A DNA stretch of 64,000 nucleotides, taken from the NCBI RefSeq assembly GCF_009683175.1, contig NZ_WKKW01000001.1, positions 682,001 through 746,000 on the forward strand, given 5' to 3'. Source of the DNA: Bifidobacterium asteroides (lineage in GTDB: Bacteria; Actinomycetota; Actinomycetes; Actinomycetales; Bifidobacteriaceae). The notes under the pieces are model-generated. The model saw nothing but the letters and a program-made list of their open reading frames with translations. It ran no database searches and was not told the origin of the DNA. The translations under genes were made by a program, and so were the position numbers. Below are positions 8,304-34,889 of this stretch, in pieces (within the stretch, counting starts at the first letter, position 1; each line of letters starts with the position of its first letter).

Positions 8304-8396
8304 AAAAGTCATAGAGGGACTTTATTTTAGTGTGCATCGACGCAGATTTAGGGGCTACGACCTGGGGAATCGGCACGCTTGGGGAGGAAGAATCGA

Positions 8397-11300
8397 ATGG
8401 GGAATGCTCATGGCATCCGCAGACTGGTGACGCTGACAGCCATGATCGGATTGGCACTGATCGGAGCATCAACAGGCGCATACGCAACCACCGGCGACAT
8501 GGCACCTGCATCTGCCACAGAATCGCCCTCGCCCAGTCCGGACAGTAGCGCAAGTCCATTGCTTCGGACAGGAAGCGAAGCACAGGTTGGAGCCGTTGCT
8601 CCGACCGCCTCACCATCACCGCTGGCCAGCAACAATCCTTCACCGTTCAAGTCCATCCAACTGTTCAACAGCAAAAGGGCGGACAGATCGTTCAGGGACA
8701 GCTCACCGAGAGACAAGTCACCCCAGACCAGGGATTCATCCTCATATACCCTCACCTTCGAGCCCGACGGGGGCTCGCTGGTATCCGGCTCGCCTGCCCT
8801 GAGCCAGACAGTAGCCTCAGGTCATCTGGCATCCCCACCTGCTGTCAACAAATCAGGCTACCTGTTTGACGGATGGTTCCTCAAAGGTTCCAACGTCGCT
8901 TATGATTTCGGCAAGCCGGTCACCAGCACGCAGTCGCTTACGGCCCATTGGTCATCGGTCAATGATAGGCAGTGGACGACAACCGACGTCAGCGGCGACG
9001 ACACCGGCGGCTCTGCAATCACCTTGACTCCCCCTAAGCCCAGAGGGGTGAGATTCGCTCAGGTCAGCGCCGGCCACGACCACACCCTGGCCGTAGGTTC
9101 GGACGGCCACGTCTACGCCTGGGGCGACAACATCAAGGGCGAGCTTGGCGACAACAGCACAATCAACAAAAACACCCCAGTGCGGATTACCGAAAACGAG
9201 GCCATCAAGGGAAAGACCTTCATATCCGTCAGCGCGGGAACCACATTCTCCATGGCCCTAGCCTCGGACGGCACCGTCTACACCTGGGGCGACAACAGTC
9301 GCGGCGAACTCGGCAACGGGTCCACCACGAATTCTTCAGTACCGGTAAAGGTGAATCTTAATGCCACCATCACCGCCATCAGCGCCGGATACTGGCATGC
9401 CATGGCCCTGTCCTCAAGCGGGACGATCTACACATGGGGAGACAATCAATACGGCCAGCTCGGCAACGGGCGCACGGGCATCAACGTCAACTCTTCACCA
9501 GCAGCAGTCTCTTCATCCGGCGTCACCTTCACCACCATCAGTGCCGGATACGATTTTCAAACGGCGCTGGACAGCCAAGGACATGCCTACGCCTGGGGAC
9601 GCAACCAGGGCGGCCAGCTCAGCATCGGCACCATGGACGGCACCAGCAGTGGTTCCAACGTCTACACTCCATCGCGCATTTACGGCGACTCGACCGGCAA
9701 CCCAGACAGCACTGTCTATACCGACATCGATGCAGGGTACCTGCACGTCCTGGCACTGAGCAATACAGGCAAGGTGTACTACTGGGGTTATCCCCTGACC
9801 AAAGGAGATGACCCCAATGCCGACAGCGTCCACTCCTTCTATCCCAGCCTGTTAAGTCTGCCCACGGGAGCGGCGACGCCTGTTTCAGTCAGCGCCGGGG
9901 ACTACTCCTCTGCGATAGTCGACTCTGCAGGCAGCCTGTACATGTTCGGCAGCAATTCCAGCGGCCAGCTGGGCGACGGAACCACAAAACCCAGATCAGA
10001 TTCAGATATGACCAAGGTGAGCCTGACAGGCATCACAGTCGCCGCATTCGATGTCTGCCGGCACAGTCTGGCCATCGGCTCGGACGGGCTCCCCTACAGC
10101 TGGGGCGAAGCGAAAAACGGCAAGCTGGGACAAGGCAGCAAGGGACTTCAAAGCGGTTCGCAGACCACGCCTGCAGCGGTCGGCCCGCCTCAGATAGATC
10201 TGGCCAAGGTGACCTTCGGCAGGACGGATGTAGCCAAGACCGACACCAACAGCCCGATTAGCCGAACTTCAGCAGGCGACGACACCTGGAGTTCAAATAC
10301 CCCATGGACGGTCACTACCCCGCACCACACTTACGGAACCACCAAGATCAGGATCAACGACGGTCAATGGTCCATTGGCGGCGCCGCACAGCAGGGGCAA
10401 AGCATCGGCAACTATACATTCACACCCACTGCCCAGAAGATCACTTTTGATTCGGACGGAGGCTCATCAGCCTCGGACCAGTTCGTCACCGCAGGCAAGC
10501 AGGCTTCGCGCCCCACCGTCACCAAGGCAGGTTTCCTGTTCGACGGCTGGTTCATCAAGGAGGCGGACGGCAGCTCCAATGTGGCCTACGACTTCAGCAG
10601 TCCGGTCACCGGGCCACTGAATCTGAAAGCGCATTGGTCTTCGTCAGACATGAAATGGAAGACCTCGGATGCCCTCCATGGCGACGACACCGGGGGCTCC
10701 AAAATCACCCTGACTCCCCCCAAGCCCAGAGCAGTGAGATTTGCCCAGGCCAGCGCCGGGCGCTACCACACTCTGGCTGTGGGTTCTGACGGACACGTCT
10801 ACGCCTGGGGAAATCAGGCCAGCGGCGGACTGGGGAACAGCAAAAACTCAGGCACGGCGACGACACCTGTGCGGATCACCGAAAATGATGCCATAAAAGG
10901 AAAAATCTTCATAGCCGTCAGCGCCGGGGATGCTTATTCCATGGCCCTGGCCTCGGACGGCACGGTCTACACCTGGGGCAGCAACGGCAAGGGACAGCTC
11001 GGCAACGGCACTACCGATAATTCCAACGAACCAGTACAAGCACAGACAGGCGATGCCAAAATCACCGCCATCAGCGCGGGACGGGCATATGCCATGGCCC
11101 TGGCCTCGGACGGTACGGTCTACACCTGGGGCGACAACGGCAAGGGACAGCTCGGCATCGGCAACTATGACAGCCATTCCACCCCTACCAAGGTCACGGC
11201 GTTGTCCAACATAACAGCCATCAGCGCAGGATTTACCTCGGGCACGGCCCTGGACAGTCAAGGCCACGCTTGGACTTGGGGCCAGAACGACAAGGGGCAG

Positions 11301-13883
11301 CTTGGCAACGGCGCTCCTAATGACAGTCCGACACCGACACGTGTCCAAGACCTAGACACCGGACAGCCTGATACTCGGTTCTATATAGCCATCAGCGCGG
11401 GCTACCAGCATGTGCTGGCGCTGGATACGGATCATGACCTCTATGGATGGGGTTCCGGCACCGCCATCGGCTCCACCACAGATACCAATGTCAGTAGGAG
11501 AGGATCCACCGCGATTAGCTTTGGAGACGAGCCTGTCAACATCACCTCCATCAGCGCGGGCGACGATGGATCCGAAGCCATAAACGACAGCGGAAGGATC
11601 TATACCTGGGGCAAGGAGGGCTACGGCCAGCTGGGCAATGGCGTGAACGACAATACGGCATGGCAGACCAATCCGAAAACCATCACCCTGGCCCAGTCGG
11701 TAGGGGCTCGCGCGGTATCCACCTCCAGCCATCACCAGACGGCCATTGGGTCTGACGGATTGCTCTACACCTGGGGATACAGCTACTACAACCAGCTCGG
11801 CCGAACCGGAGCGACCTCAGTGCCTGGCACTACACAGTCGCCGCAGATCACCCTGATTAAGGTCATCTTCGGCACCATGGCCAGCAGCACCAAGCCAGCC
11901 ACAAACCTGACCCAGACAGGTAAAGACACCTGGGATGCAAACCGGGATTGGACCTTCGTCACACCCGCGTACCCGTACGGCCCCTCCAGTTTCACCATCA
12001 CATGGACTATTGCCGACGATACCGGGGACTCAAGGCAGACACAGCAGTTCGACTACACCTTCGATCGGACCAAGAAACGCATAACGCTTGACCCTGAGGG
12101 AGGTACTGGAGCTGCATGGACAAGCAAAGACATCGAGGAAGGCGAATTGGTACCCCGACAGACCGTGGCCAAGACGGGCTTCCTGTTCGACGGATGGTTC
12201 GTCAAAGCGGCTGACGGCAGTTCAAATGTTGCCTACGACTTCGGCAAGCCGGTCACGGACCCGTTGACCCTGGTCGCGCACTGGACACTGTCGACTCAAA
12301 TGACCGTCGACCCAACCGTCAGTCCATCCACTGGCGGATACCAGGTCACCGTCACTCCGCCCTCGCAGCGCGGCATCCGCTTCGCCCAGGTCAGTACAGG
12401 CAAAAACCATACCCTGGCCGTCGGCAGCGACGGCAACGCCTACGCCTGGGGAAACAACAGCACGGGACAGCTCGGCAACGGCAGCAAGGACAGCAGCAAG
12501 ACGCCCGTCCAAGTGAAGAAGCCATCCGACGCAGGTACCGACTTCGCCTACATCCAGGTAAGTGCTGGATATGGATTTTCGTTGGCCCTCGGCAGTGACG
12601 GCAATGCCTACGCCTGGGGAGACAACGGCAGGGGGCAGCTCGGCAACGGCAGCAAGGACAGCAGCAAGACGCCCGTCCAAGTGAAGAAGCCATCCGACGC
12701 AGGTACCGACTTCGCCTACACCCAGGTAAGTGCAGGAGGCTATCATTCCCTGGCCATCGGCAAGGATCATCAGGTCTACGCCTGGGGAGATAGAAGCAAC
12801 GGCGGACAAGTGGGCGATGGCAACACAACCGGGAACGCGCCTGCTCCTGTAGCTGTCAACGCAAGCGCCACCAGTCCTGGGTTCCAGGCCAGACAGGTCA
12901 GTGCGGGATACCAGCACTCTCTAATCATCGGCATAAGCGGACAAACTTACGCCTGGGGATACGGCGACAGCGGCAGACTGGGCAACAATGCCAAATCCTC
13001 ACAGGCCACTCCTGTGTCGGTATCGTCACCCGTGCAATACGAGGACGGATCGACAGGATTCTTCGCCACTCAGGTCAGCGCAGGAGGCTCGCACTCCCTG
13101 GCCATTGGCAGAGACGGCAAAGCCTACGCCTGGGGTGCGAATACCGATGGGCGACTGGGCACCGGAGACACCAATGATGCCGCAATACCGACCCTGGTGG
13201 CTGATCCTGACGGAGGCAGCGATGGATTCAAACCCACCGAGATCAGCGCCGGTGGATGGTTCTGCGCGGGAATCGACGACAAAGGGCGAATCTATACCTG
13301 GGGAAACAACGGACAAAACGCCCTAGGCAATGTCTCCATCTCAGGATCCATCAGCGCATCCCCCGTCTTGGTGAGTAAGGACGGTAGCACCATACAGATC
13401 AGTGCAGGCGAGCGCCAAGTCCTGGCCATCGATTCCGACGGCATGGCCTACGGTTGGGGCGACAACAGCGGCAGACAGCTAGGCACCAATTTGGACAGCA
13501 CTTCCGTCAAAGCAGCAACTTTGGTCTGCCCGCCGCAATTGACCATCAGCTCAGTCACCGTCGGCACGGATCCACATACTGCTGCAGTTCTTGAACTGAC
13601 CCGGAGCGGCACGGCAGACACATGGGGATCATGGAATACCTGGACCTTCTATACCCCAGCCTTCAAGGCAGGCCAAACAACAGTCAATATCACCTGGGAT
13701 GTGGGCCAAGGCAGCTCTCAGACTGAGAGCCTGCCCTTTACCTACAGGGATATTCTGCCCCTGACCGGCAGCCAGGGTCTGCTCGTCATTCTGCTTGTAG
13801 GGCTTTTCGTGACGGTGACGGTCCTGGCGGCGAGGCAACATTACCTGGAAACAGCCCATCAGACTCTAGCCAGCACTCACTGA
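8397..13883 (+). CDS. LPLTG-anchored surface protein: three InlB-repeat/RCC1-propeller modules
   Basis: The 1828-residue secreted protein begins with a signal peptide (MGNAHGIRRLVTLTAMIGLA) and a Pro/Ser-rich linker. Three modules follow, each an InlB/Listeria-Bacteroides type B-repeat (YLFDGWF...VAYDF...LTAHWS), a block of seven RCC1 repeats and an Ig-like strand-rich segment. B-repeats lie near residues 117-188, 680-748 and 1228-1298; RCC1 blocks near 215-600, 775-1150 and 1322-1714. Each RCC1 unit carries SAG...ALxSDG..Y.WG....GQLG; seven per block equals one seven-bladed propeller. It ends with the sortase signal LPLTG (about 1787), a hydrophobic span and a short tail. The ATG at 8397 has GGGGAGGAAG six bases upstream. 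Probably an adhesin or glycan/protein-binding surface factor; the ligand is unknown. No sortase gene is in the window. Confidence 0.9.
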   Translation: MGNAHGIRRLVTLTAMIGLALIGASTGAYATTGDMAPASATESPSPSPDSSASPLLRTGSEAQVGAVAPTASPSPLASNNPSPFKSIQLFNSKRADRSFRDSSPRDKSPQTRDSSSYTLTFEPDGGSLVSGSPALSQTVASGHLASPPAVNKSGYLFDGWFLKGSNVAYDFGKPVTSTQSLTAHWSSVNDRQWTTTDVSGDDTGGSAITLTPPKPRGVRFAQVSAGHDHTLAVGSDGHVYAWGDNIKGELGDNSTINKNTPVRITENEAIKGKTFISVSAGTTFSMALASDGTVYTWGDNSRGELGNGSTTNSSVPVKVNLNATITAISAGYWHAMALSSSGTIYTWGDNQYGQLGNGRTGINVNSSPAAVSSSGVTFTTISAGYDFQTALDSQGHAYAWGRNQGGQLSIGTMDGTSSGSNVYTPSRIYGDSTGNPDSTVYTDIDAGYLHVLALSNTGKVYYWGYPLTKGDDPNADSVHSFYPSLLSLPTGAATPVSVSAGDYSSAIVDSAGSLYMFGSNSSGQLGDGTTKPRSDSDMTKVSLTGITVAAFDVCRHSLAIGSDGLPYSWGEAKNGKLGQGSKGLQSGSQTTPAAVGPPQIDLAKVTFGRTDVAKTDTNSPISRTSAGDDTWSSNTPWTVTTPHHTYGTTKIRINDGQWSIGGAAQQGQSIGNYTFTPTAQKITFDSDGGSSASDQFVTAGKQASRPTVTKAGFLFDGWFIKEADGSSNVAYDFSSPVTGPLNLKAHWSSSDMKWKTSDALHGDDTGGSKITLTPPKPRAVRFAQASAGRYHTLAVGSDGHVYAWGNQASGGLGNSKNSGTATTPVRITENDAIKGKIFIAVSAGDAYSMALASDGTVYTWGSNGKGQLGNGTTDNSNEPVQAQTGDAKITAISAGRAYAMALASDGTVYTWGDNGKGQLGIGNYDSHSTPTKVTALSNITAISAGFTSGTALDSQGHAWTWGQNDKGQLGNGAPNDSPTPTRVQDLDTGQPDTRFYIAISAGYQHVLALDTDHDLYGWGSGTAIGSTTDTNVSRRGSTAISFGDEPVNITSISAGDDGSEAINDSGRIYTWGKEGYGQLGNGVNDNTAWQTNPKTITLAQSVGARAVSTSSHHQTAIGSDGLLYTWGYSYYNQLGRTGATSVPGTTQSPQITLIKVIFGTMASSTKPATNLTQTGKDTWDANRDWTFVTPAYPYGPSSFTITWTIADDTGDSRQTQQFDYTFDRTKKRITLDPEGGTGAAWTSKDIEEGELVPRQTVAKTGFLFDGWFVKAADGSSNVAYDFGKPVTDPLTLVAHWTLSTQMTVDPTVSPSTGGYQVTVTPPSQRGIRFAQVSTGKNHTLAVGSDGNAYAWGNNSTGQLGNGSKDSSKTPVQVKKPSDAGTDFAYIQVSAGYGFSLALGSDGNAYAWGDNGRGQLGNGSKDSSKTPVQVKKPSDAGTDFAYTQVSAGGYHSLAIGKDHQVYAWGDRSNGGQVGDGNTTGNAPAPVAVNASATSPGFQARQVSAGYQHSLIIGISGQTYAWGYGDSGRLGNNAKSSQATPVSVSSPVQYEDGSTGFFATQVSAGGSHSLAIGRDGKAYAWGANTDGRLGTGDTNDAAIPTLVADPDGGSDGFKPTEISAGGWFCAGIDDKGRIYTWGNNGQNALGNVSISGSISASPVLVSKDGSTIQISAGERQVLAIDSDGMAYGWGDNSGRQLGTNLDSTSVKAATLVCPPQLTISSVTVGTDPHTAAVLELTRSGTADTWGSWNTWTFYTPAFKAGQTTVNITWDVGQGSSQTESLPFTYRDILPLTGSQGLLVILLVGLFVTVTVLAARQHYLETAHQTLASTH
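12468..12720 (+). repeat. Near-identical duplicated RCC1 unit (168-base period)
   Basis: The 85 bases at 12468-12552 recur at 12636-12720 with no difference that I could find; the first mismatch is just after them (ATCC versus ACCC). The period is 168 bases, one 56-codon RCC1 unit, so propeller blades 1 and 2 of the third block are a recent in-frame duplication. Other blades in the same protein are much more diverged. Confidence 0.85.
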
Positions 13884-14304: not shown

Positions 14305-14467
14305 AAAATACCAGTCTAATCAAGCGCCCTAGGCGACTATGCCGGGCTCCTCTCCACCTTGCCAGTGGTGTTATTGTATTGGATGGGATTATTGACTCTT
14401 GGGGAGAGTCTCGTTCGCCTACACCTGCCTATGCAAGTGCCGGACGCATGGGGGAGGATGCCTTCAC

Positions 14468-17400
14468 ATGAAGATGGTACGTAGTCGTCGCGTCACAGTG
14501 CTTGTCAGCCTATGCTGTATTTTGGTCACCTGCAGCATGCTCGGCCTGCAATTCGGTCAAGCAGCGCCGGAAGCCAATGAGACCGCAGTCGCAACTCAGG
14601 GAAATGGAGCAATTGGTACTGGAACCAATACTCCCGGACAGATTCCTTCGGTTTCCCCCGGTCCGTCATCATCACCGTCGGGCATGCCCACCCTGTCCAA
14701 CGGCACTCATGCGACGGCAACAGAACAATCAGCGCCTGCCGCCAGCACATCGCCTACCTCGCCGTCCTCATCATCGCCCGACACAGCAGGTTCCCCGGAG
14801 CCGACCTCAACCGCCTCTTCCCCATCGAATGCCACCAGCCACACAGTCACTTTCGACTACAACATGCAGTCTGCAACTCCGACAACCACGACTGTGGCTG
14901 ATGGCGCCCAGGTTGCTCGCCCCAGTCCTGAACCCACCCGCCGAGGATTCGTTCTCGAAGGATGGTTCGCAGGCAAGGTAGCCTATGACTTCTCCGCTCC
15001 TGTACACGCGAACCTGACCCTGAAAGCCAAGTGGGCCCGGGCCGACCAGACCTGGACCATGCAACCGCAAGAGGGACCAGAATCAGGAGGCACCGGAGTG
15101 ACTCTTACCCCGCCCCCGCCCTCCGGTGTCCGTTTCAGCCAGGTCAGTGCAGGCATCCGGTTCTCACTGGCTTTGGGATCGGATGGCAACGTCTACGCCT
15201 GGGGCTTTAATCGTGCCGGTCAGCTGGGCGATGGCACTATTGTCAACAGGTCGACACCCATAAGGGTGCCTAGGCCCGAAGAGGCCCGCAATGACAAGGA
15301 TTTTCGGTTCGTCAGCGTCAACGCTGGTCAGTTCTTCAGCATGGCCCTGGACAACCATGGCACCCTCTGGTCCTGGGGATACAACTATCTGAAGACCTTG
15401 GGCAACCCCAATGTGCCCGACAGCGGCATGCATGACTACTCAGAATATCTGGTCAAGGTGATGCTGCCTGAAGGGGCGCCGGCCGGATTCACCTACAAGG
15501 CCGTCAACGGTAATTACAACCACACCCTGGCCTTAGGATCAGATGGCAACGTCTATGGCTGGGGCTCCTGCAGCGAAGGAGAGACCGGCCACCACGATTG
15601 CGACGACACATGCGACTACAAGCCCAGCCTCATCCAGGGATTCGACAAGAAACACAAAATCGTCGCCCTACAGACCGGACTGAACTACTCCACGGCTCTG
15701 GACGACGCTGGCACGGTATGGTCATGGGGAAGCAACCTTGACCACCAGTTGGACCCATCCGCCGGCGCGGTCGTTGGTAACGATAAGCCGATCAAGATTT
15801 ACGGCCTTGACAAGGTCCATGTGGTGGCCATTGCAAACGGCTTCGCAAACACTCTGGCCCTGGATGACCAGGGAAGGGTTTGGACCTGGGGTATGAATAA
15901 AGCCGGCCAAATCGGCAACGGATCAAGCCCCAGCAAGACCGATATATTCAAAGACCCGGTCCAGGTCAGCTTCCCGCAGGGGACCAGAATCACTGCCATC
16001 ACTAGCGGCGGCAATTTCTATCTTAGCCACGCCATGGCTCTGGATTCCGACGGCAATATCTGGGCCTGGGGCGACAACAGCTACGGACAAATGGGCGACG
16101 GCAGGACCTCTGCAGCAGACAGCCCTCAGACCACTCCGGAACGCTTGGAGGATCCGAAACTTGCCGGCCGACACTGGATCAGCATCGACGCTGGCGAGGA
16201 GTATAACCTGGCTATCTGCGACGACGGCCTGACCTACAGCTGGGGACGTGACGACATGGGTCAGCTGGGTCAGGGCACCAGCGGCGATGGCGCCCATAAC
16301 CGGCCCTCCGCGGTCGCCTTCCCCTGGCCGGCAAAACTGACCGGACTCAAATTCGACACAACGGATATCACCACCGGAATGAAGGCGCAAAAGAACGGGA
16401 CCTGGACGGCTACCACCCCACCGCACGCACCAGGGCTGGTGGATGTGGCCCTGGCGTGGACTTTGAACGACCAAGAACAGACCCAGGTCCACCTGCCCTT
16501 CCGCTATCTGTCGAACGGTGTGACCGTAACCTTCCAGTCGGAGAGCGATTCACCGGCGCCACCCAGCCAGAGTCTGGAAGCGGGAGAGCGGGCAGTCCGC
16601 CCCAGCGCTGATCCGACCAAGGCCGGCTTCCGCTTCGATGGCTGGTTCCTAGGCAAGACCGCCTACGACTTCTCCAAGCCAGTCACCAGTTCCATGACGC
16701 TCAAGGCCCACTGGAGCCCTGAGAGTCAGAACTGGACCATGACCCCGGACCATGGAACCGAGATGGGCGGGACGAAGGTCACCCTGACACCGCCAGCCCT
16801 GCGAGGCATTCGCTTCAGCCAGGTCAGTGCCGGTTCCCACTGGTCCCTGGCCCTGGGATCCGACGGGAAGGCCTACGCCTGGGGCAAGAACGACAGCGGC
16901 CAGCTGGGCAATGCGAACATCGCCAAGGGCGGCACCAGCACCATGCCGGTCCGAGTGGATATGCCCGAGAAGGCGGAGGCCAACTTCGTCTTCACCCAGG
17001 TCAGCGCGGGCCGGGACTATGGCCTTGCTCTAGGCTCCGATGGAAAGGCCTACGCCTGGGGCAACAACGATGTCGGCCAGCTGGGCGACTCCACCCTGAA
17101 TGCCCAAGGCCGGCCCCATCCGGTACCGGGTCTGCCGGCCAAGATCCAGTCCATCAGCGCCGGCGGTGGACATGCCTTGGCTCTGGATTCCCAGGGACGA
17201 GTCTGGTCCTGGGGCGCCAACCAATACGGGCAGCTGGGCCTGGATAATGCCGGAGGCGATACCGTCTCGCCAGACGGGCGAACCAGCCCTGCCATGGTGA
17301 CCGGAATCCCGGTTACTACAACGGCAATAAGCGCTGGAAGCCGGTATTCACTAGCCATGACCGTGGATGGACAAGTCTACGCCTGGGGCACCAATGATTC

Positions 17401-18223
17401 CGGCCAGTTGGGCGATCCCTCCCTACCAGTGAGCGCTGACGGCGCCAACCCCACGCCGTCTGCCGTTCAAGGACTAACTGGCGAAATGAGCGCCATCAGC
17501 GCTGGAGACCACCAAGCTCTGGCCCTGGATTCCCAAGGACGCATCTGGACCTGGGGACAGGTCAAGGGCGAGAACAAGAAAACCCCTGCCCTATTGACCC
17601 TTCCCGACGGACTGCCGACGGGGTTTGCCATCACGCAGATCAGCGCCGGCACCGGAGCATCCTCCGCCCTGGGCTCCGATGGACAGATCCTGACCTGGAG
17701 CAATGCCGCAGAAGGCTCAGACCCAACATCCTTGGCCAAGCCCGAGGACACGCCTGCAGATTTCAGTTTCACAGCCGTCAGCACGGGCGACCCGAGCTCA
17801 CTGGCCCTAGGCTCCGACGGCCTGGCCTACGGATGGGGTGCCGACGATGCCGGCCAACTGGGCGACGACCAATCCGGACCGGACCTGAACAGCAAGACTC
17901 CACAGGCTGTTGTGATCAGAAGCCTGGTTAAGACGGTCACCTTCGCCGGACTGGCTACAGAGGGAACCCCGCAGTATCAGAACGGCACCTGGTTGGCAAT
18001 CACTCCTCGTTACAGGCCCGGGCAGGTGGATACCGTCATTCAATGGAGCCTGGTAGGCGTGGATCAAAAGGATCAGACCCTGCCCTACACCTACGACCAG
18101 TTGGCCGTCCTGCCCCTGACCGGCAGCACTGGCGTGATTCTGCTGATCATAGCTGGCCTGCTGGGCATGGGAGCCGCCATGGCTGCCAGATTCCATCGGC
18201 GGGAGAACAAAATGGCAGCATGA
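14468..18223 (+). CDS. LPLTG-anchored surface protein: two InlB-repeat/RCC1-propeller modules
   Basis: The 1251-residue paralogue of the 8.4-13.9 kb protein has a signal peptide (VTVLVSLCCILVTCSMLG), a Ser/Thr/Pro-rich stalk (about 40-120), then two modules. B-repeats lie near residues 122-190 (FVLEGWF...VAYDF) and 685-750 (FRFDGWF...TAYDF). RCC1 blocks of seven units lie near 213-620 and 775-1155, with one degenerate blade (ILTWSN) in the second. An Ig-like segment follows each block. It ends with LPLTG (about 1215), a hydrophobic span and the basic tail RFHRREN. The ATG at 14468 has GGGGGAGGATG upstream, in a leader block resembling that of the first protein. It probably presents two propellers on the cell wall; the target is unknown. 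Confidence 0.9.
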   Translation: MKMVRSRRVTVLVSLCCILVTCSMLGLQFGQAAPEANETAVATQGNGAIGTGTNTPGQIPSVSPGPSSSPSGMPTLSNGTHATATEQSAPAASTSPTSPSSSSPDTAGSPEPTSTASSPSNATSHTVTFDYNMQSATPTTTTVADGAQVARPSPEPTRRGFVLEGWFAGKVAYDFSAPVHANLTLKAKWARADQTWTMQPQEGPESGGTGVTLTPPPPSGVRFSQVSAGIRFSLALGSDGNVYAWGFNRAGQLGDGTIVNRSTPIRVPRPEEARNDKDFRFVSVNAGQFFSMALDNHGTLWSWGYNYLKTLGNPNVPDSGMHDYSEYLVKVMLPEGAPAGFTYKAVNGNYNHTLALGSDGNVYGWGSCSEGETGHHDCDDTCDYKPSLIQGFDKKHKIVALQTGLNYSTALDDAGTVWSWGSNLDHQLDPSAGAVVGNDKPIKIYGLDKVHVVAIANGFANTLALDDQGRVWTWGMNKAGQIGNGSSPSKTDIFKDPVQVSFPQGTRITAITSGGNFYLSHAMALDSDGNIWAWGDNSYGQMGDGRTSAADSPQTTPERLEDPKLAGRHWISIDAGEEYNLAICDDGLTYSWGRDDMGQLGQGTSGDGAHNRPSAVAFPWPAKLTGLKFDTTDITTGMKAQKNGTWTATTPPHAPGLVDVALAWTLNDQEQTQVHLPFRYLSNGVTVTFQSESDSPAPPSQSLEAGERAVRPSADPTKAGFRFDGWFLGKTAYDFSKPVTSSMTLKAHWSPESQNWTMTPDHGTEMGGTKVTLTPPALRGIRFSQVSAGSHWSLALGSDGKAYAWGKNDSGQLGNANIAKGGTSTMPVRVDMPEKAEANFVFTQVSAGRDYGLALGSDGKAYAWGNNDVGQLGDSTLNAQGRPHPVPGLPAKIQSISAGGGHALALDSQGRVWSWGANQYGQLGLDNAGGDTVSPDGRTSPAMVTGIPVTTTAISAGSRYSLAMTVDGQVYAWGTNDSGQLGDPSLPVSADGANPTPSAVQGLTGEMSAISAGDHQALALDSQGRIWTWGQVKGENKKTPALLTLPDGLPTGFAITQISAGTGASSALGSDGQILTWSNAAEGSDPTSLAKPEDTPADFSFTAVSTGDPSSLALGSDGLAYGWGADDAGQLGDDQSGPDLNSKTPQAVVIRSLVKTVTFAGLATEGTPQYQNGTWLAITPRYRPGQVDTVIQWSLVGVDQKDQTLPYTYDQLAVLPLTGSTGVILLIIAGLLGMGAAMAARFHRRENKMAA

Positions 18224-29872: not shown

Positions 29873-30573
29873 GGCCCCGCCACCTCCGCGTGCTGGCAGA
29901 TCCAGGAGTGCATGGCCACGGCAGCCGCAGCCCCGGCGTTGATGGAGCGCACCGATCCGAACTGGGAGATGTAGACCACATCGTCCGCCAGCTCCAAGGC
30001 CTTCTTGGACAGCCCCGGCCCCTCAGCGCCGAACATGAGCAGACAGCGACGGGGAAAGCGATAGGTCTCCATGGGGACGGCCCCGGGGACGTTGTCGATG
30101 GCGATCATGCGGGGGGTGGACTCCCCCTGCCCGGCCGCCTCTTCTCGCAGGGTGGCCGTCATGGTTGCTATGTCGGGGTCGTGGACCACATGCTGGTAGA
30201 GCTCGGTCATCAACGAGCCCTTGCGGTTCCATTTGTGAGGACCGACTATATGGACGCAGCGGGCGGCGAAGGCGTTGGCGGTTCGGACCATGGAGCCGAT
30301 ATTGAAATCGTGGGTCCAATTCTCCACAGCCACCTCGAAGTCATGACGGCCCCGGCGATCCAGGTCGTCCCGAATGGCATCGACCTTCCAATATCGGTAA
30401 CGGTCCAAAACGTTGCGCCGATCCCCCTGCTCCAGCAGTTCAGGGTCATAGCGCTGGTCCGTCGGCAGGGGCTGCTCAGGATGCTCTTCCTGCCAGGGGC
30501 CGACCCCCACCTGGCGGAAGACCGGCTCATCAGAGGCCATGGCCGCTCGGGTCACCGGATCAGGTTCCCTCAT
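29869..30573 (-). CDS. TrmH/SpoU family RNA 2'-O-methyltransferase
   Basis: The 234-residue protein carries the three SPOUT motifs: NIGSMVRTANAF (motif 1), LLMFGAEGPGLSKKAL (motif 2) and SQFGSVRSINAGAAAAVAMH (motif 3). These form the trefoil knot that binds S-adenosylmethionine. The target, a tRNA or rRNA ribose, cannot be read from sequence. A 60-residue N-terminal extension precedes the domain. It overlaps the phosphoribosyltransferase-like gene and the ABC ATPase gene by ATGA at each end. Confidence 0.92.
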   Translation of the reverse strand: MREPDPVTRAAMASDEPVFRQVGVGPWQEEHPEQPLPTDQRYDPELLEQGDRRNVLDRYRYWKVDAIRDDLDRRGRHDFEVAVENWTHDFNIGSMVRTANAFAARCVHIVGPHKWNRKGSLMTELYQHVVHDPDIATMTATLREEAAGQGESTPRMIAIDNVPGAVPMETYRFPRRCLLMFGAEGPGLSKKALELADDVVYISQFGSVRSINAGAAAAVAMHSWICQHAEVAGP

Positions 30574-31247
30574 GACCGCTCCGGAGAGTCATCGGCCGCA
30601 CCGACGAATTGATCCTCCTGGTAGGCGCAGATGAAAGGCAGTCTTTGCCGGGAGCCGTCCACTGGATCGACCACCTGAACGCTGCCATCGGTCCGGCCAC
30701 CCACCAGCGAGGCGATGGCCAACGTCTTGGCACCCTGACGCTGGATGATCCCGCAGTCAAGATTGAGTTCGTTATTCCTGCCCAAGGTAACCAGGGACGA
30801 GGTCTGCACATAGGATTTCCGGCCCAGCCAAGCATCCAGAAGGATAACCCGTCTGCCTTCGATGGACGGGCCCTTGATGGAGGGGTAAACGAAGTCCATG
30901 ACAAAGGCGTCCAGATCCTGCCCACGCGAGGCTGCGGCATGAAGCATGGCATCAGCCAGTGGCACGGCAGCGGCGGTCAGGGCCCCAACCGCATCGAAGT
31001 CGTCGACTGAATAGCCCGCATCCTCCAGGGTGTCCAGAAGAACATGCCCGGCAAGTTCGGCCCCGCGATGATGAAAGGTGACCCCGCTCAGCTCGGTGAA
31101 GGGACGCCCGCCGATCTCCTGGGTCAGGAGTTCACGCAGCTGATCGACCGGCTCAGGCAGGTCCACGTCGGATTTGCGTCCGACCAGATCAGGCGACCCA
31201 GTGGGCCTGAAGGATGAACCCTCTTGTCTCTTCGTTGCCTCGTTCAT
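30570..31247 (-). CDS. Orotate phosphoribosyltransferase-like protein, degenerate PRPP loop
   Basis: The 225-residue protein follows the type I PRTase/OPRT fold order: LTQEIGGRPFTELSGVTFHH, FDAVGALTAAAVPLADAML (substrate loop region) and GRRVILLDAWLGRKSYVQTS in the place of the PRPP-binding loop. In active OPRT the last reads roughly VDDVITAG; here it is LLDAWLGRK, and the flexible-loop R-K-E-x-K motif is missing. It is therefore probably not a working OPRT, though a different phosphosugar ligand is possible. It is the first gene of an ATGA-coupled series with trmH-type, ABC ATPase and permease genes. Confidence 0.7.
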   Translation of the reverse strand: MNEATKRQEGSSFRPTGSPDLVGRKSDVDLPEPVDQLRELLTQEIGGRPFTELSGVTFHHRGAELAGHVLLDTLEDAGYSVDDFDAVGALTAAAVPLADAMLHAAASRGQDLDAFVMDFVYPSIKGPSIEGRRVILLDAWLGRKSYVQTSSLVTLGRNNELNLDCGIIQRQGAKTLAIASLVGGRTDGSVQVVDPVDGSRQRLPFICAYQEDQFVGAADDSPERS

Positions 31248-31284: not shown

Positions 31285-32637
31285 TCACTGCCCTTGGTCA
31301 GGCAAAACTTCCGGAGCTGTCAGCTCCCTGATATTGCCCTTGTCTGAATCGATCATGTCGACCGAATCGATGACCTTGGAGGGATCCATCTGCTGCAGCT
31401 TGCGGGCGGTGACCAGAACGCGCGACTCCAAAGAGGAGGCGAACTTGTTGTAGGCGGTCACTGTGGCAGTGATGGAACGGCCCAGTTTGTTGGCCCGATC
31501 ACCCAAGACCACAAAGCGGTCATAGAGCTCGTGGGTCAATGTAAAGAGAGTCCGGGCGTCCTCGGACAGGTTCTGCTGCTGCCAGGCATAGGCCACCGAC
31601 TTGAGCACAGCCCAGAGAGTCACCGGCGAGGTCAGGGCCACCTTTTGGGCAAAGGCATCATCCATCAGGGTGGGATCCACCTCCAGGGCGGCCTGCAGAA
31701 GGGAGTCGTTGGGGATGAAGGCCACCACGAAGTCCGGGGCCGTTTCGAAGGCGTTCCAGTATTCCTTATCGGCCAGGGCCTTGACGTGCTCGCGCAGGGC
31801 CCGGGCATGCGCCTTGAGCAGTTCGTCCCGGCGGCGCAGCTCGTCGTCCGAAGCAGTATCGGGAATCTCGCAGGCCCGCTGGTAGTCGGAATAAGGGGCC
31901 TTGGCATCAATGGGAATGGTCTTGCCGCCGGGCAGATGGACCACCATATCGGGGCGCAGGACGCGACCATCCGAGGCCGTGACCACTACCTGAGTATCGA
32001 AGTCCACATGCTCCAGGAGCCCCGCAGATTCGACGATATTCCTGAGCTGAGCCTCGCCCCAGGCGCCGCGTACCTTGTTGTTGCGCAGGGCCGAAGCCAA
32101 AGAGCTAGTCTCCTTGTCCAGTCGCCCCTGCTGCTCGCCCAGACTCTTCAGCTGCTGCCCCAGGGAGCCCATCTCCTGCTTGCGGCCCTCCTCGATCTGG
32201 GCAACCTTGTGTTGTAGGGCGTCAAGATTCTTTTGCACCGGGGCCAGAGCCGAGAGCACCTTGCTCTCCTCCTCCATGCTCTCAGCCTGCTTGCGCCGCT
32301 TCTCCTCCTCCTGAGCCTGGGCGCGGCGGCGCTCCTGCTCGATTCTGATCTGTTCGGCCTGCTGGGCCTGGGCCAGCTGGGACTTGACAAAGGAGAGCTC
32401 GCGGTTCAGACCGTCCACCTTGGTCCGTGCCTCAACCAGAGCCGCATCGGATCCATGTAGCCGTTCCTGGGCCTGATCCAGCTGCGCGCGCAGCTCATCC
32501 ACCTGGCCGTCGGACCCCATACCGACGGCCTTCCGACCCTGGGCACGACCCAGCACATACCCGGCCAGTCCTCCCAGGACTATACCGATCAGCAGGAGAA
32601 GCACCACCATGACCACTGATGACGTAGAATCGAACAT
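31285..32637 (-). CDS. rmuC: DNA recombination protein RmuC
   Basis: The 450-residue protein has an N-terminal membrane anchor (VVMVVLLLLIGIVLGGLAGY), a long Gln/Glu/Arg-rich coiled coil (about 30-190) and a C-terminal RmuC domain (KVRGAWGEAQLRNIVESAGL, IPIDAKAPYSDYQRA, FVVAFIPNDSLLQAALE). RmuC limits recombination at inverted repeats and has a restriction-endonuclease-like fold. The ATG at 32637 puts the membrane anchor at the N-terminus; AGGAGG lies 13 bases upstream, which is far. The start codon sits inside a LexA-like palindrome. Confidence 0.93.
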   Translation of the reverse strand: MFDSTSSVVMVVLLLLIGIVLGGLAGYVLGRAQGRKAVGMGSDGQVDELRAQLDQAQERLHGSDAALVEARTKVDGLNRELSFVKSQLAQAQQAEQIRIEQERRRAQAQEEEKRRKQAESMEEESKVLSALAPVQKNLDALQHKVAQIEEGRKQEMGSLGQQLKSLGEQQGRLDKETSSLASALRNNKVRGAWGEAQLRNIVESAGLLEHVDFDTQVVVTASDGRVLRPDMVVHLPGGKTIPIDAKAPYSDYQRACEIPDTASDDELRRRDELLKAHARALREHVKALADKEYWNAFETAPDFVVAFIPNDSLLQAALEVDPTLMDDAFAQKVALTSPVTLWAVLKSVAYAWQQQNLSEDARTLFTLTHELYDRFVVLGDRANKLGRSITATVTAYNKFASSLESRVLVTARKLQQMDPSKVIDSVDMIDSDKGNIRELTAPEVLPDQGQ

Positions 32638-32645
32638 ATGTTCTA
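32630..32645. promoter_or_regulatory. Candidate LexA (SOS) box at the rmuC start
   Basis: TCGAACATATGTTCTA matches the actinobacterial LexA box TCGAAC-N4-GTTCGA at 11 of 12 defined positions, with a perfect GAAC-ATAT-GTTC core. It overlaps the rmuC start codon (32635-32637). The divergent P-type ATPase-like gene begins 168 bases away. Confidence 0.6.
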
Positions 32646-32813
32646 GTAAACCTCCTGCACTGGACCCGGAAACCAGATCGGCGCGGCAGGCTGCCGGCGA
32701 TAATCGGAGAATTCGTTTTTTCCGCAAGGAATCGGCCTTAAGACCGGTGCCGGACCGCAATTAAGGGCAGAATAGGAAATATCAAGGGGTTGGAGCAAGA
32801 CCGAAGGAGATCC

Positions 32814-34889
32814 GTGGGTATCGATATCTTCCTGGCGATAGCCGATCTGGTCGTGGCCTGTGCGGTCACCTGGCTGATCATCTGGTACTTCCTTATGCCG
32901 TCGGCCCACACCAGTGACCAGGATGCAGCCGCGGGCTCCCCGACCAACCGCTCCTGGCGCGATCCCGAGGATTGGGGCAAATGGGGAGCCGATCTGGACT
33001 CCCGCAGCCACCGTCTGCTCAGGCCGACCATCGTAAGTGCCCTGCTGACCGCGCCCGTCCTGGTTCTGGATCTGTTCGATCGATTCGGCCCTGATCTGAT
33101 TCCCTCCTGGCTGGCCAGCCCCTGGGTCCAGGCTATTCTGATAACCCCGGTCATCTTCTACTGCGGCCGTGGAATACTCATGGATGGCTGGAAGTCCATG
33201 ACCGAGCACCGCTGCAGCCCCGATCTCCTGGCCATGCTGGCCACAAGCCTGGCCTACCTGTACAGCCTGGCCACCTGTCTGGCCGGATCCCTGCTGCCGG
33301 AGGGATCACGATCCCCATACTTCGATCTGATTGGCGTGGTCATCACCCTCCTCTTGCTGGCCCGGGTCATCGGCACCAAAATGGAAGCATCCTTGGTGGC
33401 CTCTCTGAACCATCTTACGGAGATCCGGCCAGTCTCAGGTCTGGTGGCCGATTCCGAGCATCCGCAGACAGTTCCCGCCCAGATGCTTGCACGCGACCGG
33501 ATCCACCCAGGCGATCTGCTCCTGGTACGCACAGGAGAGCGCCCAGCCGCCGATGGGGTTGTGGAGTCAGGGTCGGCCCTGGTGGACGACAGCGAACTGA
33601 CTGGTGGCGACCGACCCCGGCCATGCGGACCCGGCGACCGGATCCTGGCCTCCAGCAAAGTCCTGGAGGGTCGACTGTCCATCCGCGTGGATGCCGCCGG
33701 CGATAATACCTATGCAGCCAGGCTCGTGAAGATCATTCCTCAGGCCCTGGTCGAGCGATCCCCCGCCATGCGCAGGATGGATCGAATCGTCCACACAGCC
33801 ATCGCCCTGATCATGATCCTGGCTGTCTGGACCTTCATGCTCTGGCTCATGCTGGGACCACAGCCCCACCTGGCCCATGCTGTAGGCAATGCCGTCTGTG
33901 TGCTGACCATCGCCTCTCCCGCCGTCGCAGCCATGACCATCCCCATGGCCTTTCGAACCAGCCTGGAGACGGGCCTGGCCCACGGTCTGCTCTTCACTTC
34001 GCCGCGGGCCATGAACCACCTGGGGCGGGTGCGCACCTTAATTCTCGACGACTCCTCTCTGCTGGATCCCGACGACTCGGAGGGCCAAGGTGTCCACACG
34101 GAATCCCTGACCAGGACCGCCACCCATCTACGCTCCCTGCGGGTGAGCAGCCTGATCCTGGATGGAAGCCACCAGCCGGACGACAGGATTGAGCGGGCGG
34201 CCCGTCAGGCAGGTGTGGATATGCTGATCACCCGGCTGACCCCCGAGCGCAAGCGCGAGTGCATGGATCGGCTCAATCACGACCTGACCCGGACCAGCAG
34301 GGGCGTACCAGCGGATCGAACTGGTCAAGACACCGCATCAGGCTCAAAGCAGGACCGCACCAGCCTCGTGGCTCTGGCGGCTGGAACCGCAGCGGATCCC
34401 GAACTGACGGCCAGGGCTCAGGTGGGTATCACTTTGGGTCCAAAACTCAAAGCCGACAGGGACCATGCCGAGGATGACACCGACCCGCCGCAGCCGGACC
34501 TGATCCTGCACCAGGGCGACCTGGACGGGACCAGTAGAGCCATAGAACTGAGCCGAGCCACCACCCAGGTCATCAGGCAGAACCTGACCTGGTCCACCGT
34601 CTACAACATGATCGCCCTGGTCATTGCCACCGGAATCTGCCAACCTTTCCTGGGCTGGATGCTCAACCCCATGATCGCAGCAGTAACAGGAGCCCTATCC
34701 ACCATCCTGGCCATGCTCAACGTTCGTCGCCTGCACCGGCTGCGGCACCTGCGCCGCCGCTGGCTACACCTGGCCCTGATCGACACGGACCAGCTCCCGA
34801 CAGTCGCTGCACGGCGCCCTCAGATCATCGTCGACAGCCAGTGGGAGTCCATGCAAGAGGGCAAGGACCCGGCTGCTGCTATGGATTGA
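32814..34889 (+). CDS. P1B-type ATPase-like protein lacking catalytic motifs
   Basis: The 691-residue protein keeps the heavy-metal P-type ATPase outline: about eight membrane spans, an actuator-like region and a shortened cytosolic loop, with recognisable segments such as SPDLLAMLATSLAYLYS and VGNAVCVLTIASPAVAAMTI. Every hallmark is altered. TGE is TGG (near residue 262). The metal-site CPC is SPA (near 367). DKTGT is DDSSL (near 411). GDGxND is AAGTAAD (near 521). The P/N domain between the last two is about 110 residues, far shorter than normal. The frame is intact. GTG at 32814 has AAGGAGA just upstream; TTG at 32790 is an alternative. Autophosphorylation and metal pumping look impossible. 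Confidence 0.8.
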   Translation: MGIDIFLAIADLVVACAVTWLIIWYFLMPSAHTSDQDAAAGSPTNRSWRDPEDWGKWGADLDSRSHRLLRPTIVSALLTAPVLVLDLFDRFGPDLIPSWLASPWVQAILITPVIFYCGRGILMDGWKSMTEHRCSPDLLAMLATSLAYLYSLATCLAGSLLPEGSRSPYFDLIGVVITLLLLARVIGTKMEASLVASLNHLTEIRPVSGLVADSEHPQTVPAQMLARDRIHPGDLLLVRTGERPAADGVVESGSALVDDSELTGGDRPRPCGPGDRILASSKVLEGRLSIRVDAAGDNTYAARLVKIIPQALVERSPAMRRMDRIVHTAIALIMILAVWTFMLWLMLGPQPHLAHAVGNAVCVLTIASPAVAAMTIPMAFRTSLETGLAHGLLFTSPRAMNHLGRVRTLILDDSSLLDPDDSEGQGVHTESLTRTATHLRSLRVSSLILDGSHQPDDRIERAARQAGVDMLITRLTPERKRECMDRLNHDLTRTSRGVPADRTGQDTASGSKQDRTSLVALAAGTAADPELTARAQVGITLGPKLKADRDHAEDDTDPPQPDLILHQGDLDGTSRAIELSRATTQVIRQNLTWSTVYNMIALVIATGICQPFLGWMLNPMIAAVTGALSTILAMLNVRRLHRLRHLRRRWLHLALIDTDQLPTVAARRPQIIVDSQWESMQEGKDPAAAMD

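What the first reader, a model, noticed from the sequence alone, without database searches (positions are those of the whole stretch)
32814..34889. Full-length P1B-type ATPase with every catalytic signature replaced
Seen: TGE to TGG, CPC to SPA, DKTGT to DDSSL, GDGxND to AAGTAAD, and a shrunken P/N domain, all in one intact 691-codon frame with the membrane layout kept. Known: these motifs are needed for phosphorylation, dephosphorylation and metal binding in P1B ATPases. Inference: a maintained pseudoenzyme, perhaps a metal-sensing or scaffold membrane protein, rather than a decaying gene, because no stop or frameshift has appeared.
Basis: partly seen in the sequence, partly recalled or inferred. 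Interest (0 to 1): 0.75.

Follow-up and report, generated by a model that had tools for sequence, protein, structure and literature searches.

The report
Dead copper pump kept by bifidobacteria
A gene in honey-bee-group bifidobacteria descends, at an unchanged place in the chromosome, from a copper pump; it has lost its fuel-binding part, its phosphorylation motif and its metal ligands, yet selection still preserves the protein, so it probably has a new, non-pumping job.

Summary
Observation confirmed. Window 32814-34889 (+) is an intact 691-codon relative of P1B copper ATPases with TGE>TGG, CPC>SPA, DKTGT>DDSSL, GDGIND>AGTAAD. All 27 genomes held for its genus carry an orthologue; 0 of 27 keep DKTGT. 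Within 13 close relatives omega is 0.10-0.13 (the same genomes' complete CopA: 0.05-0.10): retained, not decaying. Two catalytic residues survive in 25 of 27: the acceptor Asp (D412) and the motif-III Lys (K480).

The ancestor is the bigger surprise. Elsewhere in Bifidobacteriaceae the orthologue ("type B": cupredoxin + CopA core + YHS) keeps TGE, CPC, DKTGT and GDGxND in 55 of 55 ORFs, but the nucleotide-binding N domain is excised. So the N domain went first; then, in the window's genus, cupredoxin, YHS and DKTGT, with a second, complete CopA-like gene in the same genomes; then CPC in the bee clade; then the A domain in five species.

Best reading: a maintained pseudo-pump, acting as a non-catalytic membrane scaffold or regulator (role inferred). 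Boldest reading: the N-less ancestor is a copper pump run on acetyl phosphate. One structure model came back too poor to use (mean pLDDT 35); the other did not finish.

The parts
32814..34889 (+). pseudo-P1B-ATPase gene, 691 aa, GTG start
   Evidence: start and RBS conserved
32804..32810 (+). ribosome-binding site AAGGAGA
32814..32906 (+). N-terminal membrane anchor (residues 1-31); in type B the same helix precedes the cupredoxin domain
32907..33017 (+). linker (residues 32-68) where type B has the cupredoxin domain
33018..33371 (+). helices MA, MB, M1, M2 (residues 69-186)
33372..33779 (+). actuator-domain remnant (residues 187-322)
   Evidence: PF00122 match; absent in five orthologues
33600..33608 (+). 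TGG in place of TGE (residues 263-265)
33780..34007 (+). helices M3-M4 (residues 323-398)
   Evidence: lowest regional omega 0.053
33915..33923 (+). SPA in place of CPC (residues 368-370)
34047..34061 (+). DDSSL in place of DKTGT (residues 412-416); acceptor Asp D412 kept
34251..34253 (+). K480, motif-III lysine, kept
34377..34397 (+). AAGTAAD in place of VGDGIND (residues 522-528)
34554..34736 (+). helices M5-M6 (residues 581-641); YN kept, last-helix Met replaced by Gly
34737..34886 (+). C-tail (residues 642-691) with conserved RPQIIVD; YHS domain of type B absent
31285..32760 (-). rmuC, divergent neighbour (tool start TTG 32760; the conserved ATG is at 32637)
   Evidence: PF02646
34965..37808 (-). 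clpB, convergent neighbour

Best explanation
The gene is a maintained pseudo-pump. Shown by sequence: it descends in place (beside rmuC and clpB) from a Bifidobacteriaceae copper-ATPase paralogue, type B, that already lacked the nucleotide-binding N domain but kept TGE, CPC, DKTGT and GDGxND. In the window's genus it also lacks the cupredoxin and YHS domains and the DKTGT motif, and no CsoR gene lies beside it; a second, complete CopA-like gene is present in the same genomes; the bee clade has also lost the CPC and last-helix Met ligands. Purifying selection on the protein persists. Follows from known P-type ATPase chemistry (recalled): without an N domain, TGE, DKTGT and GDGxND it cannot be phosphorylated from ATP or cycle between E1 and E2, and without CPC and Met it should not bind Cu+ in the canonical site. 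Inferred: the anchor, the 8-helix core, the small P-domain remnant (perhaps held by a D412-K480 pair, since the two survive or are lost together) and the conserved C-tail act as a static membrane scaffold or regulatory partner of another membrane protein, perhaps of the same genome's working CopA.
For: 0 of 27 orthologues keep DKTGT or GDGxND. Omega 0.129, CI 0.109-0.151, in 13 orthologues; ML 0.103. Frame open in 26 of 27. rmuC and clpB in all 27 pseudo loci: 17 of 17, 10 of 10 more. Pseudo rows one clade, 99/97, inside type B. Second ATPase of 952-1091 aa in 27 of 27 genomes, motif-complete in the 10 checked. 44 positions invariant in 21 bee-clade sequences but different from the type-B majority, as expected of a new constraint.
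Against: No partner, expression or phenotype is known. Constraint is looser than on CopA (ML 0.103 against 0.053; 0.34 against 0.14 between subclades). One orthologue (G008) is frameshifted. D412 and K480 persist, which leaves room for some residual chemistry. The fold was not verified: the one model obtained has mean pLDDT 34.8. The scaffold role itself rests on exclusion.
Confidence: 0.55

Rival explanations
1. The membrane core still transports something: a passive or non-ATP-driven carrier or channel made by taking the motor off a pump.
For: Strongest constraint is in membrane segments M3-M4 (0.053) and M1-M2 (0.078); YN is kept in 24 of 27 and FN in 3; the A domain could be dropped in five species, as a carrier would allow.
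Against: CPC and the last-helix Met are gone in the bee clade, so copper is unlikely; no substrate is suggested by the neighbours (rmuC, clpB). The C-tail, far from the pore, is also constrained (0.093).
Confidence: 0.2
2. A metal sensor or receptor: the core binds copper or another metal without transporting it.
For: Six orthologues outside the bee clade keep CPC and the last-helix Met, so a metal-binding stage without DKTGT exists in the genus.
Against: The window's clade has lost those ligands, the cupredoxin and YHS domains, and any CsoR gene at the locus.
Confidence: 0.1
3. A decaying gene that has not yet met a stop or frameshift.
For: It evolves faster than the complete CopA; long branches in the pseudo clade; G008 is frameshifted; ligands and domains are lost step by step.
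Against: Omega 0.10-0.13 in two methods; frame open in 26 of 27; the start and RBS are conserved; other frames of the same DNA carry 6-34 stops.
Confidence: 0.06
4. An active P-type ATPase with unusual motifs, phosphorylated at D412.
For: D412 and K480 are kept in 25 of 27 each.
Against: No N domain, no TGE, no K/T/G/T of DKTGT, no GDGxND, no CPC. The same genome has a CopA with these motifs.
Confidence: 0.03

Closest known systems
CopA-type P1B-1 Cu+-ATPase (Legionella CopA, PDB 3rfu)
   Same: homologous over the membrane core and A domain (E=5.1e-55), same 8-helix layout by alignment and hydropathy
   Different: no N domain, no TGE/DKTGT/GDGxND, no CPC or last-helix Met; extra N-terminal anchor
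Type B of Bifidobacteriaceae (name used here; cupredoxin + CopA core + YHS, no N domain)
   Same: same chromosomal place, one clade with the window gene at 100/100, N domain absent in both
   Different: type B keeps TGE, CPC, DKTGT, GDGxND in 55 of 55 ORFs and has cupredoxin and YHS domains (Pfam on one)
Streptococcus pneumoniae CopA/CupA cupredoxin system (PMC5552934, passages)
   Same: membrane-anchored cupredoxin, fused to the N-terminus of CopA there and in types A and B here
   Different: the window protein keeps the anchor but not the cupredoxin
Guanylyl cyclases of apicomplexans with a degenerate P4-ATPase domain (recalled, no call)
   Same: a P-type ATPase fold said to be kept without catalytic motifs
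   Different: eukaryotic, P4 class, fused to a cyclase; no descent shared beyond the superfamily

Membership tests
P1B-type ATPase (as an enzyme) | sequence homology over the E1-E2 core | tested here: met
   PF00122 4.1e-29; 3rfu 5.1e-55
P1B-type ATPase (as an enzyme) | phosphorylation motif DKTGT | tested here: not met
   DDSSL; only the Asp is kept
P1B-type ATPase (as an enzyme) | TGE of the actuator domain | tested here: not met
   TGG
P1B-type ATPase (as an enzyme) | GDGxND Mg2+ motif | tested here: not met
   AGTAAD
P1B-type ATPase (as an enzyme) | nucleotide-binding N domain | tested here: not met
   D412 to the GDG position about 110 residues, against 201-234 in ten complete CopAs; no HAD Pfam hit
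P1B-type ATPase (as an enzyme) | CPC metal motif and last-helix Met | tested here: not met
   SPA and Gly
NCBIfam TIGR01511 (Cu-translocating ATPase) | score over the curated cut-off of 397 bits | tested here: not met
   195.1 bits
Maintained pseudoenzyme | catalytic motifs lost in the whole orthologous group | tested here: met
   DKTGT and GDGxND in 0 of 27
Maintained pseudoenzyme | purifying selection on the protein | tested here: met
   omega 0.10-0.13
Maintained pseudoenzyme | no catalysis in vitro, and a function in vivo | not testable with these tools
   needs the bench
Type B (N-less CopA, the ancestor) | TGE, CPC, DKTGT and GDGxND kept while the N domain is absent | tested here: not met
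   met by 55 of 55 type-B ORFs; the window gene shares only the absent N domain

The most novel reading that the evidence does not exclude
Bifidobacteriaceae carry a P1B pump with complete phosphorylation, actuator and copper-binding motifs but no nucleotide domain (type B), and in the 12 such genomes scanned it is the only hit over the copper-ATPase cut-off. It is phosphorylated directly by acetyl phosphate, the product of phosphoketolase, rather than by ATP. The window gene is its decommissioned descendant, kept as a scaffold after a full ATP-driven CopA took over. This would be an ion pump run in nature on an acyl phosphate instead of ATP.
Probability: 0.2. Interest if true: 0.93.

Novelty: new variant of a known kind. 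Interest (0 to 1): 0.72.

Why it matters
It gives, in one bacterial family and at one chromosomal place, a series from a copper ATPase to a motor-less membrane protein: N domain lost first with the other motifs kept (55 of 55 ORFs), then cupredoxin, YHS and DKTGT, then CPC, then the whole A domain. An ATPase that discards its nucleotide domain before anything else is not what coupling by ATP predicts, and it raises two directly testable questions: how an N-less P-type ATPase is phosphorylated, and what a P-type ATPase core does once it cannot pump. It also means that a gene of common gut bifidobacteria that scores as a copper ATPase lacks the ATP-binding domain.

Tried and rejected
Considered and rejected. 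(1) Recent decay: omega 0.10-0.13 and 26 of 27 open frames. (2) The real gene lies in another frame: the other five frames of the same DNA carry 6-34 stops in the window genome and give omega 0.186-2.78; the one low value (0.186, minus strand, 10 stops) I read as the codon-position mirror of the true frame. (3) N domain supplied in trans: the 143-aa N domain of type A found nothing at E<=0.01 in 10 of 12 type-B genomes; the two hits lie in other frames of 776 and 867 aa. (4) N-less ATPases widespread in the phylum: a 139-aa junction query gave, in the capped listing, mostly hits that end near DKTGT; 14 loci were fetched (12 because their alignment ran to residue 91 or beyond, 2 as top scorers; some other long ones were not fetched). 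Each of the 14 holds an ATPase frame with ordinary spacing, 193-209; two further DKTGT frames, in L147 and L155, show no GDGxND. In an order-wide draw 4 of 297 genomes matched at E<=1e-25, all in this family. (5) N domain hidden in the long spacings of G133, G143 and G144 (169-223): these are low-complexity linkers after the KPDGK motif.

Led nowhere. Plasmid collection: no match. Rfam: one tRNA in the window, nothing at the locus. The model of the window protein has mean pLDDT 34.8, pTM 0.22, no residue at 70 or more, from an alignment of 11 rows; I made no fold search with it. The second job (B. xylocopae protein) was unfinished at the last poll. Literature: 'P-type ATPase' + 'pseudoenzyme' 0 papers; 'P-type ATPase' + 'acetyl phosphate' + 'nucleotide-binding domain' 0; 'P-type ATPase' + 'lacks the nucleotide-binding' 0; with DKTGT, degenerate, lacking: 1, on barnacle Na,K-ATPase. 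Searches gave listings; of all these, five papers were opened, by passages only. The searches cover only the open library held here.

Errors on the way. The first motif table misread minus-strand loci; it was redone, where two rows not counted here (L005, L033) were still in a wrong frame. The first tree held a wrong-strand row for G119 and a distant outgroup; the tree used is, whose rows are 17 of the 27 pseudo loci, 23 of the 55 type-B loci and 10 type A. In one search pairs with dS under 0.02 or saturated were dropped (the n printed there shows how many), and one genome lacked the ABC gene. In the ML run rmuC was cut to 267 codons by gaps. The N-domain motif test got its positive control only afterwards: 10 of 10 type A rows match it.

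Full report
What is there. The window is G000:C1:682001-746000 of a 2.14 Mb genome. Its nearest named relatives at this gene are Bifidobacterium mellis, B. choladohabitans, B. sp. 7101, B. polysaccharolyticum and B. asteroides ESL0199, 92-95% identical. The frame at 32814-34889 (+) is intact and encodes 691 aa. Pfam sees only E1-E2_ATPase; NCBIfam places it among heavy-metal P-type ATPases, well under the cut-offs; the best solved relative is Legionella CopA 3rfu, E=5.1e-55. D412, the position of the phosphorylated Asp, and K480, the motif-III Lys, are still present.

Orthologues. All 27 genomes held for the genus carry the gene. rmuC and clpB flank it in 17 of 17 loci; in the 10 other loci both genes were found in the same 15-16 kb stretch. 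DKTGT and GDGxND are kept in 0 of 27, TGE in 1, CPC in 6, the last-helix Met in the same number, 6; YN in 24 with FN in 3. The Asp of DKTGT is kept in 25 of 27 and the motif-III Lys in 25 of 27; the two exceptions (G014, G018) lack both. Five genomes (G005, G006, G017, G021, G023) have no A-domain stretch; G005 is B. xylocopae by equal contig length, and Pfam finds only the tail of PF00122 in that protein. G008 has a frame break just after M2. The frame is open in the other 26.

Selection. Counting (Nei-Gojobori) over 13 close orthologues: dN 0.045, dS 0.36, mean omega 0.126; pooled 0.129, bootstrap 95% CI 0.109-0.151. Same method and genomes: type A CopA 0.103, ABC ATPase 0.173, yggS 0.110, trmH 0.095, rmuC 0.066, FAH-like 0.041, clpB 0.026. 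ML codon model: 0.103 for the pseudo-pump, 0.053 CopA, 0.097 yggS, 0.032 rmuC, 0.016 clpB; in a second set (three 57-58% relatives plus the window genome) 0.122, 0.058, 0.073, 0.084, 0.032 in the same order. Between the two subclades omega is 0.34 against 0.14 for CopA, so constraint is real but looser than on the pump. By region (13 orthologues) the lowest values are M3-M4 0.053, M1-M2 0.078, A domain 0.085, C-tail 0.093; the highest are the linker where the cupredoxin was, 0.222, and the second P remnant, 0.217. Among 21 bee-clade orthologues 133 positions are invariant; 59 agree with at least 21 of 23 type B (D412 and K480 among them) and 44 differ from the type-B majority.

The ancestor. 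At the same place in other genera of the family lies a protein here called type B: rmuC was found beside it in 21 of 23 loci and clpB within the fetched stretch in 15 of 23. Pfam, run on one, gives cupredoxin (PF13473), E1-E2_ATPase, HAD and YHS (PF04945). All 55 loci found in the family hold an ORF with CGMNM, CPC, DKTGT, TGE and GDGxND. The N domain is missing: DKTGT to GDGxND is 97-223 residues, 52 of 55 under 160, against 201-234 in ten type A CopAs. The N-domain HP motif is in 0 of 55 type B and 10 of 10 type A. The three longest spacings are low-complexity linkers placed after KPDGK. Against 3rfu the type-B alignment covers residues 88-434 and 552-732, so 117 residues of Legionella CopA are replaced by 14. 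In the Cu-ATPase profile the G117 protein is hit at positions 2-278 and 366-541. Type B is under selection: pairwise omega 0.09-0.21 in eight pairs. In 12 of 12 type-B genomes scanned it is the only listed place over the Cu-ATPase cut-off. A CsoR gene (PF02583) was found in 15 of 23 type-B loci and 0 of 27 pseudo loci; the window genome's type A CopA has one beside it.

Order of events. In the careful tree (50 rows, rooted on type A) type B + pseudo is one clade (100/100), and the 17 pseudo rows are one clade inside it (99/97). Read on that tree, by me: N domain lost at the base of type B + pseudo; cupredoxin, YHS and DKTGT lost at the base of the genus; CPC and the last-helix Met lost at the base of the bee clade; A domain lost in one branch of it. 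All 27 genus genomes have a second hit in a frame of 952-1091 aa; the 10 checked are complete CopAs. In genus g14, (E<=1e-130, four candidates scored per genome) lists type A or type B, never both. So displacement by a complete CopA is a likely release (inference). The tool warns of long branches in the pseudo clade.

Mechanism. The window protein has no nucleotide domain, no phosphorylation motif beyond D412 and K480, no TGE and no canonical metal site; on known P-type chemistry (recalled) it cannot run a pump cycle. What is kept is the anchor, the 8-helix core, a small P remnant and the C-tail. I take it for a static scaffold or regulator (inferred). D412 and K480 persist together and vanish together, which suggests a structural pair (inferred; only one lineage lacks them). 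For type B: acetyl phosphate is a known donor for P-type ATPases. It drives Ca2+ transport by the sarcoplasmic reticulum pump like ATP (statement and reference in PMC7961605, passages), and H+,K+-ATPase whose nucleotide site is blocked by FITC can still hydrolyse it (PMC4215238, passage). Phosphoketolase, which makes acetyl phosphate, is present in 14 of 14 family genomes tested; its central role in the bifid shunt is recalled. That is the novel case; it is untested. One published hint: in B. breve UCC2003 Bbr_0268 (silP, cation-transport ATPase), whose number adjoins csoR Bbr_0269, rose 6.7-fold (table; 7.6 in the text) under iron limitation (PMC5449479, passages). That Bbr_0268 is the type-B gene is my inference from that neighbour.

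Limits. The type-B set was chosen by similarity, so distant or broken ones may be missing. Outside the family only 297 order and 396 phylum genomes were sampled (the draws include family members). The fold is unverified. PMC5552934 and PMC6244367 were seen by passages and gave background only.

Noticed in passing
L078:7059-9818 (-) and 54 further loci (L075-L098 in part, L157-L188): Motif-intact P1B copper ATPases without an N domain, fused to cupredoxin and YHS domains, in 55 genomes of the family.
   Followed up: partly
window 32814-32903: The first 30 codons have a synonymous divergence of 0.059 against 0.35 for the whole gene among 13 orthologues, and a block upstream is also conserved: perhaps a promoter or RNA element shared with the divergent rmuC. 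Rfam found nothing there.
   Followed up: partly
window 8379-13883 and 14399-18223 (+): Two large proteins (1834 and 1274 aa) made of RCC1-type repeats plus Listeria-Bacteroides repeat domains, possibly surface proteins.
   Followed up: no
window 30570-31247 (-): 225-aa protein without a Pfam match, found in 39 of 40 loci (not in L080).
   Followed up: no
L073 (G008), gene on the minus strand: The only orthologue of 27 with a broken frame; the break lies just after M2. Assembly error and true loss were not told apart.
   Followed up: partly
L060 (G012), between uppORF (ends 1583) and rmuC (starts 5051): About 3.5 kb separate two genes that adjoin in the window: an insertion in that genome, content not examined.
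   Followed up: no
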